Source of the DNA: Candidatus Woesearchaeota archaeon | Lineage (GTDB): Archaea; Nanobdellota; Nanobdellia; Woesearchaeales; JAGWAF01 | Length of the DNA stretch: 34,410 nt | Assembly (NCBI GenBank): GCA_018302085.1 | Contig: JAGWAF010000026.1 | Location: 1-34,410, forward strand | Reading direction: 5' to 3' | Part shown: piece after piece, positions 4,125-28,518 of the stretch | How positions within the stretch are numbered: position 1 is the first letter of the stretch | How the letters are laid out: every line of letters begins with the position of its first letter | The notes under the pieces: model-generated | The model's input: the letters and a program-made list of their open reading frames with translations, nothing else | Databases searched by the model: none | Told to the model about the DNA's origin: nothing | Translations under genes and position numbers: made by a program

Positions 4125-4177
4125 AATAAAAAAATGAGGGAACGGAAAAAGAATCTCTTGTGTTCTATGTTATACTC

Positions 4178-4263
4178 AAAGCATTAAATTATCGAACATT
4201 ACAATGCTTTTCGTAATAGTGAAGATGCACTATTCATGTTCGAATATTTGGTGCCTTCACTAT
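4178..4263. repeat. Tandem double hairpin with complementary loops (element K1)
   Basis: HP1 AAAGCATT(4178-4185)/AATGCTTT(4203-4210), 17-nt loop. HP2 ATAGTGAAG..GCAC/GTGC-CTTCACTAT (4216-4263), 20-nt loop. Loop 8-mers TCGAACAT (4192-4199) and ATGTTCGA (4236-4243) are exact complements. Confidence 0.75.
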
Positions 4264-4302
4264 AACAAAACATTTTTATAATTGATAAACCTTCCAAACA
4301 GA

Positions 4303-6164: not shown

Positions 6165-7433
6165 ATGAACATAGAAGACCTGAATAACTGGAATCCTTGG
6201 TGGTTGGAAAAAGAAGTGAACAAAGCCCTCAAGGGGGTGGAAAGAAAAGTTAATCCGTTGATTTTTAAGGCCCTCCAGGAGAGGGAGATCATTGCGCTTA
6301 CAGGGATAAGACGATGCGGAAAAACAACGATCATGTACCAGATGATTGCGTTGCTTCTTCAGACATATAAACCTGAACAGGTATTGTACATCAATCTAGA
6401 TGATGAAGCTCTTAATAAGGAGTCTCTTGAATCCATTTATTTGTTTTACCGTCAGAATAAAAATCCAGATCAAAAGGCATTCCTCTTTCTCGATGAAATA
6501 CAAAATGTCCAAGGATGGGAAAAATTCCTTAAAAAAACCTATGATCTTATGGAAAATGTCAAGTTTGTCATATCCGGCTCTTCAGCGAATCTTCTCCGAG
6601 GAGAATACGCTACGCTCCTTACGGGAAGAAATATCACGTTTAACATCTTCCCACTTTCCTTTAAGGAATTTCTTGAATTTTCTCATATTAAATACGAAAA
6701 AATTACTACAATTACAAAAAGCAGAATTATTTATGAACTGAACAATTACTTAGAATACGGGGGTTTCCCTGAAGTTTTTTTCAAAGAGAAAGAGATTAAA
6801 AGAATTCTTCTGAAACAATATTTTGAAGATATCGTCTATAAAGATATCGTTAAAAGGCACAACATTAATGCAAAAAAAGTAACTGATTTGGGGGTGTATC
6901 TCCTCACCAATATAGCAAATTCATTCACTATAAGAAAAATAAGAAATTTTACCGGGCTATCGATAGACTCCATTAAGGACTATCTTTCTTATTTAGAAGA
7001 TGCATTCCTTGCCCTTCCCCTGGAACACTTTTCGTATTCACTCAAAGAAAGATCGCAACGGCCAAAAAAAAGTTATTCCATCGACTGCGGATTGCGCAAC
7101 GTAGTGAGTTTTCGTTTCTCACAAGATATTGGAAGACTAGCAGAAAATTGCGTCCGTGCCGAATTACTACGCAAGGGAAAAGAAACGTATTACTGGAAAG
7201 AAAAAGGAGAAGTAGACTTTGTTGTAAAAAATCAAGATAACACTCTTACGGTCATCAATGTTTCTTTTGCTGATGATATCCAAGAGAGAGAAATAAACTC
7301 ATTAAAAGAGTTCAAAACAAAATTCAAAAAAGTCGATACTTTAATACTCCTCACGAGGAATATTGAAGAAAAGACAGAAGGCGTTCTTAAGATTCCCTTA
7401 TGGAAATGGCTTTTGTCAGAAGCGCAACGTTGA
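6165..7433 (+). CDS. AAA-family ATPase with DUF4143-like C-terminus
   Basis: Walker A LTGIRRCGKTTIMYQ, Walker B FLFLDEIQNVQGWEKFLK, SGSSANLL, LLTGRNITFNIFPLSFKEFL, C-terminal nuclease-like EVDFVVKN. ATG at 6165 follows a TATA-like ctttataaata. Confidence 0.88.
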   Translation: MNIEDLNNWNPWWLEKEVNKALKGVERKVNPLIFKALQEREIIALTGIRRCGKTTIMYQMIALLLQTYKPEQVLYINLDDEALNKESLESIYLFYRQNKNPDQKAFLFLDEIQNVQGWEKFLKKTYDLMENVKFVISGSSANLLRGEYATLLTGRNITFNIFPLSFKEFLEFSHIKYEKITTITKSRIIYELNNYLEYGGFPEVFFKEKEIKRILLKQYFEDIVYKDIVKRHNINAKKVTDLGVYLLTNIANSFTIRKIRNFTGLSIDSIKDYLSYLEDAFLALPLEHFSYSLKERSQRPKKSYSIDCGLRNVVSFRFSQDIGRLAENCVRAELLRKGKETYYWKEKGEVDFVVKNQDNTLTVINVSFADDIQEREINSLKEFKTKFKKVDTLILLTRNIEEKTEGVLKIPLWKWLLSEAQR

Positions 7434-20098: not shown

Positions 20099-20134
20099 TT
20101 CTTCTTCTCTTTTTTTAAGTTGATAATGCAACTG

Positions 20135-20230
20135 TATAGCAAATGACTTTAATAATCGTAGCTTTGGCAAAGTCATTTGCTTATTAGGAAAAGACGTGAA
20201 ATCTACGAAAATTAATGTCTTTTCCTATAG
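20135..20230 (+). repeat. Tandem double hairpin with complementary loops (element K2, copy 1)
   Basis: HP1 AGCAAATGACTTT/AAAGTCATTTGCT (20138-20181, 18-nt loop). HP2 TAGGAAAAGAC/GTCTTTTCCTA (20185-20227, 21-nt loop). Loop complement TCGTAG (20156-20161) / CTACGA (20203-20208). Confidence 0.9.
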
Positions 20231-20373
20231 TTCATCCTTTGCTATTTTTTTCCATATTAAGGAGTCGTAGTTTTGCGTTAAGCTTTTCATACTCCTTTTT
20301 TGTTCTGGTTTTTATAAATATTTTCTCTTCCCTCTTGGCCAAGCTTTATTAAGAACTCTATTTTTCTCATTTG

Positions 20374-21084
20374 ATGCCAAATCCACTAGCAAATTTTTCG
20401 GATAAAGGTTTGCACTTAGGCGATATCGAAAGTTTTTTTCCATCGGTTGCGGAAGGTCTGGAGAAAAGAATTATTCATCTTCGTGTGAAGGCCCGGACAA
20501 GGACTGACAGTAGAGTTGTAAGGGATTTAAAATCAATCCTTGAATCTCGTTTGCCACCATCTCATGATGGAATTTCAGACGAGAAGATTTCTTATGCCGT
20601 TGCCAAATACTTCCTTGATAAATTTTTGGAAAGCGCAGGTCAAGATCCAAAAAACAGTTTAGAATCGATATCTGGATATAACCCTTTTGATGTCTATCAT
20701 GTTGTAACTAAAAAGTGGAATTATTATCTCGCTTGTGATTTTAACCTTGACAGGGAAGGAAGAGTTGGTCCTCAGCCATGCTCAAATGTTGTTGCGCGGG
20801 CGCAAAGGAATCGCTTTCCTGTTTATTTCTTAACAGTGCTTCCGAGCGATATTTTTTCAAGGATGGTGTCGCATGTTCGTCCTGATGCTATTGGCAATCC
20901 TAAAGAACGTGCCAGGCGAAATCGTTTTGCAGGGTGCCCCGACATACATCTTTTACTTCAAACAAATCGAATAAAATTTTTAAGAGATCCTTATCAGTTG
21001 TTTTTAGTGTACTCCGCACCCTGTTACGCGTTGTTAGAAACTGGTCTGGCAGCACTTGGTTATCCTCAATCTCAAGTTCGATAA
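20374..21084 (+). CDS. Hypothetical protein
   Basis: 237-aa ORF with coding-like composition; TATA-like tttataaatatt upstream. Confidence 0.55.
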   Translation: MPNPLANFSDKGLHLGDIESFFPSVAEGLEKRIIHLRVKARTRTDSRVVRDLKSILESRLPPSHDGISDEKISYAVAKYFLDKFLESAGQDPKNSLESISGYNPFDVYHVVTKKWNYYLACDFNLDREGRVGPQPCSNVVARAQRNRFPVYFLTVLPSDIFSRMVSHVRPDAIGNPKERARRNRFAGCPDIHLLLQTNRIKFLRDPYQLFLVYSAPCYALLETGLAALGYPQSQVR

Positions 21085-21108
21085 TTCTTTTTTTTCACAA
21101 AATAAAAG

Positions 21109-21247
21109 TGGGCCCGTCGTGATTCGAACACGAGACCTCTCGATCGTTGAACCTTTGTTCAAGGAGCAATGGTTTATCAGTCGAGCGCTCCATTGCCCTC
21201 ACTCCTAACACAGTGTCAGGGAGTGGTCCAGGCTAAGCTACGGGCCC
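21109..21247 (-). tRNA. tRNA-Ile (GAT) interrupted twice: D-loop insertion plus 30-nt intron at 37/38
   Basis: Acceptor GGGCCCG/CGGGCCC; T-arm TCGTG-TTCGAAT-CACGA; D-stem GCTT/GAGC; anticodon stem CTCGA/TCGAG, loop CTGATA|A. Intron AACCATTGCTCCTTGAACAAAGGTTCAACG fits a bulge-helix-bulge. Extra ~33-38 nt in the D-loop contain the stem CACTCC/GGAGTG. Confidence 0.85.
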
Positions 21248-21250
21248 AAG

Positions 21251-21336
21251 CGTCCCCAGCCGGGTTCGAACCGGCGACCTGTCGGTTTCTACGATAAACG
21301 TAACAGCCGACCGCTCCGCCGTTAAGCTATGGGGAC
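21251..21336 (-). tRNA. tRNA-Asn (GTT) with 14-nt intron at 37/38
   Basis: Acceptor GTCCCCA/TGGGGAC + G; anticodon arm GTCGG-CTGTTA[CGTTTATCGTAGAA]A-CCGAC; T-arm CCGG-GTTCGAA-CCGG region. TATA-like TTTATAAA on the minus strand at about 21370. Confidence 0.9.
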
Positions 21337-21446
21337 AATTCTCTCCTTTTAACAGGGGTTTTCGGCTGTTTATAAAGGTTTCGGGGTATTTTTGTCTTAT
21401 ATAGAAAATAATTACTTTTTTAAATGAGGTTCCTTGCTTTTATCTT

Positions 21447-21701
21447 ATGGATTACGATTTAGAACTTGACAACGTTGTTGAAAAAATTAGAAAAGAGCAT
21501 GCTCAAACGGTTTGCATACAGCTTCCGGAAGGCTTACGTCCTCTCGCCGCAAAAATAAGCGCTGAGTTGGAGCAAAAAACTGGCGCTACAATCATGATCT
21601 GGGCGGGTAGTTGTTACGGCGCATGCGATCTCCCTCTTGAAGTTCAGCGACTAGGAGTAGATCTTCTTGTTCAGTGGGGTCACAAGGAATGGATTTACTA
21701 A
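21447..21701 (+). pseudogene. N-terminal fragment of Dph1/Dph2-like diphthamide synthesis enzyme
   Basis: IQLPEGLRPLAAKISAELEQKTGATIMIWAGSCYGACDLPLEVQRLGVDLLVQWGHKE, then stop; the family normally continues for >200 residues. Confidence 0.75.
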
Positions 21702-21952
21702 ATGTCTGGCAGTGGATTGCCACGATACTCATTCTTGTTGGTAGTATCCCTCTTGGTTATTTGCTTGGAAAGATTGCAAAAGAAGAGTTAAAAGAGTTAA
21801 AAAAAATTTTGAACGTAGTTTGCGTACTTTTCTTTATCGGCTTCTTTGCAAGTCTTGTCTGGCTCTTTTTACATTTAACTTTTTACGCCCTCTACCTCAC
21901 GTTCACGTTTATTTTTCTTCTCGGATTACTGCGCGGAAGCTCATATAGATAA
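21689..21952 (+). CDS. Small membrane protein
   Basis: MDLLNVWQWIATILILVGSIPLGYLLGKIAKEELKELKK..., 2-3 hydrophobic helices. Confidence 0.5.
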   Translation: MDLLNVWQWIATILILVGSIPLGYLLGKIAKEELKELKKILNVVCVLFFIGFFASLVWLFLHLTFYALYLTFTFIFLLGLLRGSSYR

Positions 21953-22035
21953 CTGCGCAACTTATAGCCTATTTGGCGCAGTTATCTAATAAGTAAACTG
22001 CGTGTACAAGTAGGCTATATCCTACGCAGTTTACT
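21946..22035. repeat. Tandem double hairpin with complementary loops (element K3)
   Basis: HP1 TAGATAACTGCGC/GCGCAGTTATCTA (21946-21988, 17-nt loop). HP2 AGTAAACTGCGT/ACGCAGTTTACT (21992-22035, 20-nt loop). Loop TATAGCCTA (21963-21971) complements TAGGCTATA (22011-22019), extendable to 13 bp (21963-21975 with 22007-22019) including one G-U. Confidence 0.92.
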
Positions 22036-22063
22036 ATATCATACAAAATAAATATTATAAACA

Positions 22064-22639
22064 TTATATAATATAAGAAAGCAACACTCCTATAACGCCT
22101 GCAAACACTGGAACGTACAAATTATCTTCTAAATGGTCCATAAAAAGTTCGATGAATGAAGCTGCCAATGCCATAATTAAGATAGACAGGATACTATTTA
22201 GAAAAAATAAACCTACTACGATACACACTACAAAATTTGCTACAATGCCTTGCATTGTTTTTTCCTTCCAAACCTTTTTTGTTCCCCACCTTTTTCCTAC
22301 AATCGCTGCAGCAGGGTCACCAAAATAACTCATGCCCAACGCAGCCAGCGCAATTTCTAAAGGGTAAAAATATAGGACGAGCAAAATACCTAATGTTGCA
22401 TACGTGATGGCAATCATCCTCTTTTGTTCTTTCTCCTTCTGCAGATCAGAAAAAATCGGAATTCTGACATTTAATTCAATTCTCAAAAAATCAATTATCA
22501 AAAACAAAAGCAATGCGATAAAGGCAAGCCAGAGCACAGTTGCGTGATCGTATGCATTTTCAACAACAAAAATGAGGTACAGGGTGAGTGCACCTAGGCC
22601 CACGTGAGCTATTTTTCTTAAAAAATAAGTGTCTACCAT
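22064..22639 (-). CDS. Dolichol/phytol-kinase-like (CTP-dependent polyprenol kinase family) membrane protein
   Basis: Multi-TM; YFGDPAAAIVGKRWGTKK ... KTMQG. Confidence 0.7.
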   Translation of the reverse strand: MVDTYFLRKIAHVGLGALTLYLIFVVENAYDHATVLWLAFIALLLFLIIDFLRIELNVRIPIFSDLQKEKEQKRMIAITYATLGILLVLYFYPLEIALAALGMSYFGDPAAAIVGKRWGTKKVWKEKTMQGIVANFVVCIVVGLFFLNSILSILIMALAASFIELFMDHLEDNLYVPVFAGVIGVLLSYII

Positions 22640-23175
22640 TTTTCTCCTCTGATCTTGGTGTAGTATGCGATGTGATTAATGATGACGTGAAGTATAAAAT
22701 AAATGAGCACTCCATAAATGCTTTCAAGCCAACCAACGAAATAAATCGGAGCCGCACATGCTATTGCTCCTATCGTGTAATCAATTTGATCAAACGGAAT
22801 CCACGATTTTCCAGAGGCAATGTTTACTCTCCTCTTCAAAAAGCTTTTGATAAGGTCTCCAAAAACAGCACCGAAGCCAAGCAAAAAGCCAAGGAAAATG
22901 GATGTTTCGGAATAGTTTACAAGACTGTAGGATTGGAAAAATGGGAATATATACAATTTCTGCTGTATAAAAAAAATAATCACTCCGAATAAAGAACCGA
23001 GAAGAAGGCCACGCCAGGTTTTATGCTTTCCAAAAATAGGTTTTCCATTCCAGGTTTTGTTGGCATCGATAGGAACTGCCCAACTTTTTAATAGGTTTTT
23101 ACACATCACAGGCGCCATATTGGCAAATCCTGCAGGAAGAAGGAAATAAAAAATCGAAAGTATTTCTTGGATCAT
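22633..23175 (-). CDS. carS: CDP-archaeol synthase
   Basis: PAGFANMAPV, KTWNGKPIFGKHKTWRG, FGAVFGDLIKSFLKRR, DQIDY. Confidence 0.9.
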   Translation of the reverse strand: MIQEILSIFYFLLPAGFANMAPVMCKNLLKSWAVPIDANKTWNGKPIFGKHKTWRGLLLGSLFGVIIFFIQQKLYIFPFFQSYSLVNYSETSIFLGFLLGFGAVFGDLIKSFLKRRVNIASGKSWIPFDQIDYTIGAIACAAPIYFVGWLESIYGVLIYFILHVIINHIAYYTKIRGEKW

Positions 23176-23834
23176 TGTATCTTCTTAATTTTAAACCTCG
23201 CAATCATTAGTAATGAAAGTGGCAAAAACACCCAGGGCCAAAAAGTAGGGGGAAGACCAGCAAAAAAAAGAATCGGGGTGAGGTAGCCGTTGATGGTGAT
23301 GGGCATTCCATAAAAATAAATGTGAGTTTGTTGGATATTAAATCGTGCAAGACGAATGATACCGCACCACACAAAAATCAGGTAGATAATCATTGCAACT
23401 GTTGAAGCATTCTGCATGAATGCAAACACGGCGGGCGCTACACCAAAAGAAACGATATCTGCAAGAGAGTCTAGCTCTTTGCCTAACTCGCTTGTCTTAT
23501 GTGTCCAACGTGCAATTTTACCATCCAAAGCATCGCAACATATGGCAAATATCAGCATAGTCGCAGCCAAATAAAAATGTTGGCTAATGGAGAAGAAAAT
23601 GCAGAGGATTCCGAAACCAGCGTTCAGTAAAGTGAAGATGTCGGCAGTTTTAATTTTTTTTGTACGAAATCTTTCTATTAGTTCATGACGTTTCTCTTTC
23701 AGTCGCAAAACCTTTTTTTTGACATTAATCCTTATATTTTGTCTTGTATTTTTCATTCTCGCCTTGGCAAGAGAAATCTTTTCCTTAATCTGATCTCTTT
23801 TCCTTTCAATCTTTTCTTTTGTTTCGGGTTTCAT
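23172..23834 (-). CDS. CDP-alcohol phosphatidyltransferase (archaetidylserine synthase-like)
   Basis: CDALDGKIARWTHKTSELGKELDSLADIVSFGVAP. Start at 23834 overlaps the psd stop. Confidence 0.88.
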   Translation of the reverse strand: MKPETKEKIERKRDQIKEKISLAKARMKNTRQNIRINVKKKVLRLKEKRHELIERFRTKKIKTADIFTLLNAGFGILCIFFSISQHFYLAATMLIFAICCDALDGKIARWTHKTSELGKELDSLADIVSFGVAPAVFAFMQNASTVAMIIYLIFVWCGIIRLARFNIQQTHIYFYGMPITINGYLTPILFFAGLPPTFWPWVFLPLSLLMIARFKIKKIQ

Positions 23835-24550
23835 AAATACTCTGCGAGAATTGTTGTTCCCGCTTTTACGTGTTGGCCTTCCTTTATATTTAATCTCATT
23901 TTTGGAATTATTAACGTCACTTGCGAACCAAATGTTATCTTTCCTATTCTCTCTCCTTTCTTTACACTTTCGTTTACTTTTTTCCAAGGAATAATTCTTC
24001 TTGCAAGAAATCCTGCAATTTGAATGACCTTGATTTTTCCTAAGTCCTTGTTTTCTATTATGTACTCAACCTTTTCATTCTCTAATGCTTCTAGATTTTT
24101 CGCGTTTTTAAAACCTCCTTTTTCTCGAGTTATCTTTACGATTTTTCCGTCAACAGGTGAGCGGTTGATGTGAACATCAAAAACGGTCATAAAAATAGAA
24201 ATAAGATAACGAGCATCAGGAGTGTCTTTTGTCATGGTTGAAATCTTTCCCCAAACTCCTTTATCGATTTTCATTTTTCCATCTTTTATCATCTCTTTAT
24301 TCACTTTTTCTCTTTCATCCTTTATTCCTTTTCCACTTTTTGTTAGCTCTTTTTTTTCTTTCAAATCAATAATTGCAATCACCCAACCATCAGCAGGAGA
24401 AACCATCACTTTTCCTTCAGGAATTTTTCTTTTCGGATCTCGATGAAACTGCAAGAGGAAAAGCAGTGCAAGAAGAACTATTATTATAAAAACTACCAAA
24501 AAAATGTTCATGCTCTTATCGGGAAAAAAGAGGTATATAATCCTTTTCAC
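23831..24550 (-). CDS. Phosphatidylserine (archaetidylserine) decarboxylase-like protein
   Basis: HRDPKRKIPEGKVMVSPADGWV, FMTVFDVHINRSPVDGKI, GSQVTLIIPK at the expected self-cleavage (GS) position. Confidence 0.87.
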   Translation of the reverse strand: MKRIIYLFFPDKSMNIFLVVFIIIVLLALLFLLQFHRDPKRKIPEGKVMVSPADGWVIAIIDLKEKKELTKSGKGIKDEREKVNKEMIKDGKMKIDKGVWGKISTMTKDTPDARYLISIFMTVFDVHINRSPVDGKIVKITREKGGFKNAKNLEALENEKVEYIIENKDLGKIKVIQIAGFLARRIIPWKKVNESVKKGERIGKITFGSQVTLIIPKMRLNIKEGQHVKAGTTILAEYL

Positions 24551-24593
24551 AAAAAATGTTTATTGCTTCAGACTGAGTGTTGGTTGTTTCTTC

Positions 24594-25466
24594 TCATTTA
24601 TTCTTTCTGTATACTGAATGTCCGACGTGCTCTAGTGTTGACAGTCCCATTAGTGAGATACCTTCTGTAGCACCTAAAAAAAGATAGCTTCCCACGTGCA
24701 TGCAGTTTTCTGTCAATGCCGTGAGAACTGTACGCCTGTCATCATTCGACATATAAATAAGAACATTTCTCAGAAAAACAATGTCTGGATTTTCAAACTC
24801 ATTTGGAAATTTGACATGTTTATTCGCGACGTGTCTTAAATTGAGTTTTTCAAAAGTAACTCCATCTTTTATGGAAGGATGCACCACTCTATACCATTTT
24901 CCATCCCTATTCTCTACTCTTGTATAGCACTCAAGCAATTTTATATATCCTAAACCACAATCCTCTGAAATGAAAGATGAAAGGAGGTACTCCCCCTTTC
25001 TCGCCTGTGCCAATGCCTCCTTTCTAATGTCTGTTGCAAGAATTTTAACAGGTTTTCCCACCTTTGCGGCTACCATTGCAATGCTATACGCCTCCCTCCC
25101 ATCCGAACAGCAGAGATCCAAAATAACTGAAGTTCCAGAAATGGTTGGAAGTAACCCTTCTAAATATCTGAACTGTTCGGGTTCACGGAAAAAGTAAGTT
25201 TTACCATTAAGCAAGGTATTGGCAACATCTTCTAACAATTGAGAGCCCGGCCTTAGCGCTTTGATAAAGTCCCTCCAACTTGAAAATTTGGAAGCAAGTC
25301 CTTCTAATCTACGACCAATATTCGGACGTACGGTTTTAGGCGGACCAGAAAGATACGACTCCTCGATACGCCATATTATCGTGCTAAGCTCTTCTTTGGT
25401 GGGTTCTCCAATGGACTCTCCACTGGGTTCTTTACCAGGTTCTCTGCCATGTGTTCTTATCTGCAT
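24594..25466 (-). CDS. CheR-like methyltransferase
   Basis: NGKTYFFREPEQF, ILDLCCSDGREAYSIAMV, ILATDIRKEALAQARKGEY, PDIVFLRNVLIYMSNDDRR. Confidence 0.83.
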   Translation of the reverse strand: MQIRTHGREPGKEPSGESIGEPTKEELSTIIWRIEESYLSGPPKTVRPNIGRRLEGLASKFSSWRDFIKALRPGSQLLEDVANTLLNGKTYFFREPEQFRYLEGLLPTISGTSVILDLCCSDGREAYSIAMVAAKVGKPVKILATDIRKEALAQARKGEYLLSSFISEDCGLGYIKLLECYTRVENRDGKWYRVVHPSIKDGVTFEKLNLRHVANKHVKFPNEFENPDIVFLRNVLIYMSNDDRRTVLTALTENCMHVGSYLFLGATEGISLMGLSTLEHVGHSVYRKNK

Positions 25467-25497
25467 CGACTTGGATATTCACGCTTGTTTTAAAAAG

Positions 25498-25593
25498 CTA
25501 TAGGAAAAGACATTAATTTTCGTAGATTTCACGTCTTTTCCTAATAAGCAAATGACTTTGCCAAAGCTACGATTATTAAAGTCATTTGCTATA
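25498..25593 (-). repeat. Element K2, copy 2 (exact reverse complement of 20135-20230)
   Basis: Base-by-base comparison: all 96 positions identical. Confidence 0.95.
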
Positions 25594-25631
25594 GCCCCAT
25601 CTTTTTAAACCCAACTATCTTTTTTATCGTT

Positions 25632-27104
25632 ATGACGACAGTTATACTAGACTGCTACACTGATGAACCTGCGGGGCTTGGAGTTCCACCTTACTTGGGA
25701 ACATACCCACGCTACTTGGCTGGCTGGCTGAAAAGTCAAGGTCAGGAATATATTTATTTAACAATTGATGATGTCAGACTCTGGAAAAATTATGGCGGGA
25801 AAAAAATTGTTCCTAAAAAAAGTCAGAAAACTGATATTTTTACTTATAATCTAACAAATAACGCCGACAATGTTCATAAAATTTTGGAAAACTGTTCTGA
25901 GATGTACATCATCTGTGGTGTACATGTTCCAGGAAAATATTTGAGCGCGATGCCAGGAACACTCCATGAAGTTAGTAAACTTGTGCAGAACTTGAAATGC
26001 AGGAAAATTTTAATGGGCCCTGTTGTATTTGGAACGAGCTTGCATGGAGGAAAAGAAAGTGAGATTGTTGATGAAAATAAATTTGAAATTGGAGAATATG
26101 ACTTTAATTTTGCGGAGGCGAAAAAATATTCTGTTTTAGGTGCTGACATCTTGCAGTGCATTCCGGATATTCGCGTGTTAGAAATCGAAACTGGAAAAGG
26201 ATGCCAAAGACTCAAGGGGTGCAGTTTTTGCACTGAGCCATTGAAAAATAAGTTTGTGTGCCGTCCCAACGACGATATTTTGGAAGAAATGAAAGCTCTA
26301 TATGATAACGGTGCACGTTACTTTAGGCTTGGAAAACAAGCGTGCATTTACGCCCAGCCAGACTTGCCTGCCCTGCTAAAGAATATCAGAAAAGCGATGC
26401 CGGAAATCAAAGTTTTACACATCGATAATGTCAATCCCGTAAACGTGATTGGAAAAAATGGTGAAGAATATACCAAGGCAATTGTTGAATATTGTACCGA
26501 AGCAAATGTTGCAGCAATGGGTGTAGAAAGTTTTGATCCAACTGTTGTTGCTGAAAATTTTCTGAACACTACTCCAGAGCTAACCTATCGGGCTATTGCC
26601 ATCATTAATAAATACGGTAAGGAACGCGGCCCCAACGGAATGCCAAAATTTATTCCAGGAATCAATCTGATTTACGGCTTGAAAGGAGAAACAAAAGAAA
26701 CCAATGCGCACAACTTGAAATGGCTTCACAAAATTATCGATGACGGATTTTTATTGCGAAGAATTAACATTCGCCAAGTTGCAGTTATGGACAATACACC
26801 TTTAAAAGAAATGGGCGGGTTAAAATTTTTACATAAAAACAAAAGATATTATTGGAAATGGCGCAACCAAGTACGGCAAGAAATCGACGTTCCAATGCTT
26901 GAAAAAATTACTCCAGTCGGAACTGTTTTACATGACATCTACACAGAAATATACGATGGCAATACCACGTTTTGCAGACAGTTTGGAACGTACCCACTAA
27001 TTGTTGGAGTAAAAGGGCGTCTTCCATTAAAACAATTCATTTCTATTCGTGTTACGGGACATATGAAAAGGAGTATTATTGGGGAAGCTGTCCTACAAAA
27101 TTAA
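25632..27104 (+). CDS. Archaeal radical SAM protein (COG1031-like)
   Basis: DCYTDEPAGLGVPPYLGTYPRYLAGWL N-terminus; ETGKGCQRLKGCSFCTEP cluster motif; GINLIYGLKGETKET. Confidence 0.78.
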   Translation: MTTVILDCYTDEPAGLGVPPYLGTYPRYLAGWLKSQGQEYIYLTIDDVRLWKNYGGKKIVPKKSQKTDIFTYNLTNNADNVHKILENCSEMYIICGVHVPGKYLSAMPGTLHEVSKLVQNLKCRKILMGPVVFGTSLHGGKESEIVDENKFEIGEYDFNFAEAKKYSVLGADILQCIPDIRVLEIETGKGCQRLKGCSFCTEPLKNKFVCRPNDDILEEMKALYDNGARYFRLGKQACIYAQPDLPALLKNIRKAMPEIKVLHIDNVNPVNVIGKNGEEYTKAIVEYCTEANVAAMGVESFDPTVVAENFLNTTPELTYRAIAIINKYGKERGPNGMPKFIPGINLIYGLKGETKETNAHNLKWLHKIIDDGFLLRRINIRQVAVMDNTPLKEMGGLKFLHKNKRYYWKWRNQVRQEIDVPMLEKITPVGTVLHDIYTEIYDGNTTFCRQFGTYPLIVGVKGRLPLKQFISIRVTGHMKRSIIGEAVLQN

Positions 27105-28438: not shown

Positions 28439-28518
28439 AGAAGTTTGAGCAAATTGAGATGTTACTCAAACTTCTCTATCAGAGGTTTGAACAAATATAA
28501 TAGGTTATTCGAACCTCT
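28439..28518. repeat. Tandem pair of related hairpins (K4), loops not complementary
   Basis: AGAAGTTTGAG-15 nt-CTCAAACTTCT, ctatc, AGAGGTTTGAA-16 nt-TTCGAACCTCT (one G-U). Confidence 0.7.

What the first reader, a model, noticed from the sequence alone, without database searches (positions are those of the whole stretch)
20135..25593. K2: 96-bp element present as two 100% identical inverted copies 5.3 kb apart
20135-20230 is the exact reverse complement of 25498-25593, while the flanks differ completely apart from a CTATAG-like terminal hexamer. The contexts also differ: copy 1 is downstream of a pseudouridine synthase gene, copy 2 is between divergent CheR-like and radical SAM genes. Perfect identity of noncoding DNA implies recent transposition, gene conversion or strong selection. 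The pair flanks a segment with two tRNAs and the lipid operon that could invert by homologous recombination.
Basis: partly seen in the sequence, partly recalled or inferred. Interest (0 to 1): 0.82.

Follow-up and report, generated by a model that had tools for sequence, protein, structure and literature searches.

The report
Archaeal double-hairpin miniature transposon family
The two identical 96-letter sequences are two copies of a tiny jumping DNA element that carries no genes and appears to be moved by IS630-type transposases; related elements with the same two-hairpin layout but different sequences are scattered by the dozen through this archaeon and occur in many of its relatives.

Summary
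It is a mobile element. The unit is 91 bp (TAG...CTA) flanked by a duplicated TA, with imperfect ~26-bp inverted ends and two adjacent hairpins. The window holds four such elements, and the genome at least 32 in six or more subfamilies. A quarter or more of the genomes of the order carry it, and it reaches other families of the class. Insertion with TA duplication is shown by an unoccupied copy of a repeat in the same genome and by genes split at exact codon positions. IS630-family transposons of the same order carry the same ends, left and right matching separately: 21/21 bases between one IS end and the window's third copy. These elements are therefore IS630-derived MITEs. What is unusual: the autonomous ISs examined lack the inner hairpin arms, while the MITEs keep them, 40 arm sequences being 97-99% paired almost without G-T pairs. 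Element length clusters at about 88 or 109 bp, two helical turns apart. Inversion is untested, only one tRNA (not two) lies between the copies, and the target is TA, not CTATAG.

The parts
20137..20227 (+). Copy 1 of the element (91 bp, TAG...CTA); left hairpin 20138-20181, spacer 3 nt, right hairpin 20185-20227
   Evidence: CM R2 104.8 bits
20135..20136 (.). Target TA, left of copy 1 (partner 20228-20229)
   Evidence: TA rule
20228..20229 (.). Target TA, right of copy 1
25501..25591 (-). Copy 2, identical and in opposite orientation; right hairpin 25501-25543, left hairpin 25547-25590; fills most of the gap between divergent genes 24594-25466 (-) and 25632-27104 (+)
25499..25500 (.). Target TA of copy 2 (partner 25592-25593)
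25592..25593 (.). Target TA of copy 2
21946..22036 (-). Third element, other subfamily (arms AGTAAACTGC / AGATAACTGC), flanked by TA at 21944-21945 and 22037-22038; its ends match an IS630 transposon of genome G228
4173..4262 (-). Fourth element, another subfamily (left end TATAGTGAAGGCACC, right end TATACTCAAAGCATT read inward), flanked by TA
   Evidence: 46.7 bits, E 4e-6

Best explanation
[quoted passage not shown] A DDE (IS630/Tc1-mariner-like) transposase supplied in trans recognises the ~26-bp ends (TATAG + subfamily-specific arm + TTAATnnTCGnA), cuts the element out as duplex DNA and inserts it at a TA, which is duplicated. Shown: copy number, TA duplication, gene interruption, shared ends with intact IS630 elements of the same order, conserved hairpin pairing. 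Inferred: mobilisation in trans (no IS630 transposase is held in this genome), and the role of the inner hairpin arms. My best guess for the arms is that they are extra, in-phase copies of the transposase-contacted end sequence, or DNA hairpins, that help such short elements synapse; they may instead be kept perfect by template-switch repair.
For: Further copies in the genome at 98-99% with different flanks; at least 31 loci by covariance model, plus window 4169 which that scan missed. TA duplication: unoccupied palindromic repeat CTAGAGAAGTTTGAGTATTTCTCATTATTTCAAACTTCTC beside filled ones; removing element plus one TA restores YhcG_C over profile 1-157 of 157 and the aminoacyl-tRNA editing domain; a PIN gene read in two pieces has 8 residues where the profile has 8. 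Target consensus AT-TA-RWT over 85 copies. Partners: IS630 of G228 (345-aa transposase, NF033545 8e-65) with ends TATAGATAACTGCGTAGGATACAGC and TATAGATAACTGCGCAACTTA, matching the third window copy LE to LE 17/21 and RE to RE 18/21 over the bases after TATAG (shuffles: 95% at 12-13, max 14); IS630 of G081 with TTAATAATCGGA (LE) and TTTGATTTTCGGA (RE), the same inner motif, spacing and left/right asymmetry as the 96-mer type. DDE_3 presence goes with element presence, odds ratio 3.0, p 0.0015.
Against: No DDE_3 transposase in this 94.6%-complete genome, nor in G169 which has about 26 near-identical copies. No autonomous IS with exactly the arms of the 96-mer (GCAAATGAC/GGAAAAGAC) was found. The DDE_3 association is not specific: Y1 transposases also associate (odds ratio 2.4, p 0.0003).
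Confidence: 0.9

Rival explanations
1. A REPIN-like or IS200/IS605-derived element: a Y1 (HUH) transposase recognises the hairpins in single-stranded DNA and moves the unit through an ssDNA intermediate.
For: Two inverted hairpins of about 90-110 bp look like the REPIN 'clover' fold (PMC3116915); stems covary; Y1_Tnp is in 135 of 362 genomes of the order and associates with the element.
Against: TA is duplicated on insertion, whereas IS200/IS605 insertions make no duplication (own knowledge); this genome, G302, G211, G212 and G246 carry the element without Y1_Tnp; end sequences match IS630, not Y1 loci.
Confidence: 0.05
2. A functional RNA (cis-regulatory or small RNA) whose two-stem structure is selected, spread by some means as a regulatory module.
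For: Strong fold (z -6.6), covarying stems, copy 2 fills a divergent promoter region.
Against: Only 2 G-U pairs in about 640 stem cells and no stem pair with a one-sided change, unlike RNA helices; both orientations and insertions into coding genes; no Rfam match; the loop-loop pairing does not covary beyond the shared end motif (p 0.10).
Confidence: 0.04
3. Assembly artefact or a single local duplication.
For: Some copies lie at contig ends (C40, C47, C33, C62, C10), where assembly breaks at repeats.
Against: The two window copies have unique flanks inside one contig, and the element is found in 104 of 362 genomes of the order.
Confidence: 0.01

Closest known systems
Correia elements (CREE/NEMIS) of Neisseria
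   Same: Ends begin TATAG[CT], inverted repeat searched with ~26-base patterns, TA target with occasional CA, mostly 104-108 or 153-157 bp, interrupt genes (PMC2649163). Here too: TATAG, TA, some CATAG ends (L025, L083), two length classes.
   Different: Sequence beyond TATAG[C/T] unrelated; here each end also has an inner complementary arm forming two adjacent hairpins; host is an archaeon; IS630 partners identified here, whereas that paper calls the mobilising mechanism of CREE undetermined.
RUP of Streptococcus pneumoniae
   Same: ~107 bp, AT-rich, ends like those of IS630-Spn1, proposed to move in trans (PMC3049150).
   Different: No inner-arm double hairpin with dozens of covarying sequence subfamilies is described in the passages read; different host.
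REPINs (REP doublets) with RAYT transposases
   Same: Two inverted palindromic units able to fold as one long hairpin or as two; compensatory changes (PMC3116915).
   Different: No Y1 transposase required here; TA is duplicated; ends match IS630.
IS630 family insertion sequences (DDE_3) of the same archaeal order
   Same: Same ends and same left/right asymmetry.
   Different: About 1.1 kb with a transposase gene; ends have no inner arms (best inner complement 5-7 of 10, against 10 of 10 in the MITEs).

Membership tests
MITE (non-autonomous DNA transposon derivative) | Short, non-coding, multicopy | tested here: met
   91 bp, at least 32 loci in own genome
MITE (non-autonomous DNA transposon derivative) | Terminal inverted repeats | tested here: met
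   Outer arms 7.6/10 identical on average between ends; mean end identity higher than between subfamilies, p 0.0005
MITE (non-autonomous DNA transposon derivative) | Target-site duplication and empty sites | tested here: met
   TA
IS630-derived element | TA duplication | tested here: met
IS630-derived element | Ends shared with an autonomous IS630 element | tested here: met
   Third window copy vs G228 IS630; for the 96-mer itself only the inner motif and asymmetry match (G081 IS630), not the outer arm
IS630-derived element | Mobilised by that transposase | not testable with these tools
   needs an experiment; no DDE_3 gene in own genome
REPIN/RAYT | RAYT (Y1) transposase in the genome | tested here: not met
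   none in own genome or in four other element-bearing genomes
REPIN/RAYT | Conserved tetranucleotide tag at the hairpin foot | tested here: inconclusive
   TATAG is conserved but is part of the TA/IS630 end
Correia element (CREE) | CREE consensus TATAG[CT]GGATTAA... | tested here: not met
   Only TATAG[C/T] is shared, by inspection of the ends; the rest differs
Structured RNA family of Rfam | Match to a covariance model | tested here: not met

The most novel reading that the evidence does not exclude
A distinct structural class of MITE in DPANN-like archaea in which each end has gained an inner arm complementary to its outer arm, four or five helical turns away, so that the element is a four-site, helically phased DNA device (or a DNA cruciform) selected for efficient synapsis by IS630 transposases. 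The arms then co-evolve with each transposase subfamily, leaving a sequence-blind, structure-conserved family across a whole class.
Probability: 0.3. Interest if true: 0.65.

Novelty: new variant of a known kind. Interest (0 to 1): 0.48.

Why it matters
No MITE from DPANN archaea turned up in the papers searched. This one is class-wide, interrupts genes and has identified IS630 partners, so the source of many short repeats in these uncultured genomes becomes testable. The inner arms, absent from the IS ends, pose a clean question: what do paired subterminal arms and two-turn length steps do for a minimal transposon? It also gives annotators a covariance model with which to mark split genes.

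Tried and rejected
Kissing-loop pseudoknot: the loops are complementary (TCGTAG/CTACGA), but across 22 subfamily representatives this does not exceed cross-pairings (p 0.10), so it is explained by the inverted ends. RNA element: rejected on the near absence of G-U pairs. Y1/REPIN mobilisation: not required. Own-genome DDE_Tnp_1 gene at C66:29269-30072 (one stop): no matching ends. The first IS630 elements examined (G247, L132; G287) had different ends, so IS630 was nearly dropped until the order-wide search. Viral contigs: 17 chance 17-mers, no covariance-model match; no hit to the end pattern. An LE-only remnant at C37 was considered as an autonomous element and rejected: it sits between a P-type-ATPase-like gene end and a short ORF.

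Full report
Observation. The 96-bp inverted pair is exact and stands far above any other inverted repeat in the window. Trimmed by the TA rule below, the unit is 91 bp. It folds as two adjacent hairpins, GCAAATGACTTT...AAAGTCATTTGC and GGAAAAGAC...GTCTTTTCC (z-score -6.6).

Copies. A search of the window's own genome (1.29 Mb, 94.6% complete, 91 contigs) gave four full copies at 98-100% and three partial ones. A covariance model from relatives found 104 of 362 genomes and 68 of 223 genera of the order. It also found genomes of other families of the class at E up to 1e-5. Only ten candidates per genome were scored, so copy numbers there are lower bounds; a pattern search counted about 26 copies in G169. 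A wider model (34 sequences) gave 31 distinct loci at E below 0.003 in the window's genome after removing opposite-strand duplicates. A full-sensitivity scan of the window gave four: 4169-4265, 20134-20231, 21942-22039 and 25497-25594; the first of these was missed by the genome scan, hence at least 32. An independent structural scan found the same four among seven adjacent hairpin pairs, with loop complementarity of 6-9 nt; dinucleotide shuffles gave 0 to 2 weak pairs per window.

Host. CDP-archaeol synthase and an archaeal helicase domain in the window show an archaeon.

Insertion. Joining flanks with one TA kept gives the longest open reading frames at several sites. For C20:6552 the restored protein matches YhcG_C over profile positions 1-157 of 157 across the junction; for C20:5843 the aminoacyl-tRNA editing domain over 1-122. 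For the C66 copy, which splits a PIN-domain gene, the two pieces were read apart: they end and start so that 8 residues fill 8 profile positions. At DNA level, the genome holds an unoccupied palindromic repeat...GTATTTCTCATTATTTCAAACTTC, and filled ones...GTATTTCTTATTA[TAGCAAAGG...CTA]TATTTCAAACTTC. The duplication is TA. The target consensus over 85 copies is AT-TA-RWT.

Partner. IS630 transposases (DDE_3) occur in 41 of 362 genomes of the order. Several of these ISs have the MITE ends. The G228 IS (345-aa transposase, IS630 equivalog NF033545, 8e-65) has right end TATAGATAACTGCGCAACTTA, 21 of 21 bases identical to the right end of the third window copy; the left ends match each other separately. 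Over the 21 bases after TATAG the matches are 17 (LE) and 18 (RE), against a best-of-shuffles 95% level of 12-13 and maximum of 14. The G081 IS has TTAATAATCGGA on the left and TTTGATTTTCGGA on the right at the same distance from the end; AATAATCG on the left and ATTTTCG on the right is the asymmetry of the 96-mer family. No DDE_3 gene is in the window's genome, so trans supply from a lost, missing or visiting IS is inferred.

What is unusual. In 74 distinct copies with 40 different arm sequences (counted over all copies), left stems have 9.9 and right stems 9.7 of 10 pairs, while the two ends agree in only 7.6 of 10. On a MAFFT alignment not fitted to structure, 16 of 19 stem pairs show double changes; the whole structure is 96.8% paired against 38-48% when slid by one to three columns. 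G-U pairs are almost absent (2 of about 640 stem cells), so the constraint or process most likely acts on DNA, not RNA. The IS630 ends do not have the inner arms (5-7 of 10 at best, against 10 of 10 in window copies). Hairpin spans are 40-45 or 50-56 bp (one copy of 48/35 and one of 55/44 apart) and whole elements are 86-90 or 103-111 bp, with a gap between. The difference is about two helical turns, and the same arm pairs occur in both length classes. I read this as a sign that the element works as duplex DNA with ends in helical phase. Relatedness of copies was not corrected for, so this is a lead, not a proof. Template-switch repair of near-palindromes could also keep the arms perfect.

Comparison. 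By defining features this is a MITE of IS630 type. It shares TATAG[C/T] ends and the TA (sometimes CA) target with Correia elements (PMC2649163) and the proposed IS630 trans mobilisation with RUP (PMC3049150). Its two-hairpin layout recalls REPINs (PMC3116915), but a Y1 transposase is absent from this and other element-bearing genomes and TA is duplicated. Full-text searches for DPANN MITEs returned nothing relevant; most subscription papers are not in the library.

Transposition: supported. CTATAG duplication: no, TA. Two tRNAs in the segment: one. Inversion: untested.

Noticed in passing
G000:C20:5843-5940 and 6552-6649 (L211, L004): Two elements of different subfamilies 0.6 kb apart split two genes (aminoacyl-tRNA editing domain and YhcG nuclease), consistent with gene decay by these elements.
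   Followed up: yes
L222, L224, L232, L220, L227, L230, L006 (own genome): A palindromic repeat GAGAAGTTTGAGTATTTCTTATTTCAAACTTCTC is occupied at its central TA by at least three element subfamilies; L230 keeps an unoccupied copy. Either an insertion hotspot or composite repeat units.
   Followed up: partly
window 28439-28518: Two adjacent hairpins of another repeat (AGAAGTTTGA...TCAAACTTCT) without the loop complementarity; copies in L212 and L219.
   Followed up: no
G012:C37 (L038/L040) and G169:C45 (L136): A different double-hairpin element with centre GAGCATGCTC and ends TGTC..GACA, nested in the right-hand loop of a family member in G012:C37.
   Followed up: no
G045: L028, L031, L033: Three copies with the same left truncation (starting at CGGAAC), at different sites; perhaps a mobile truncated form.
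   Followed up: no
window 21251-21336 (-): A tRNA found by Rfam (53 bits) but not by ARAGORN; 86 nt, so a long variable arm or an intron.
   Followed up: no
L174 about 1194-1330 (G257:C7): A family member lies just upstream of a Y1 transposase gene, beside what looks like an IS200/IS605-type end; an assembly gap of N lies next to it.
   Followed up: partly
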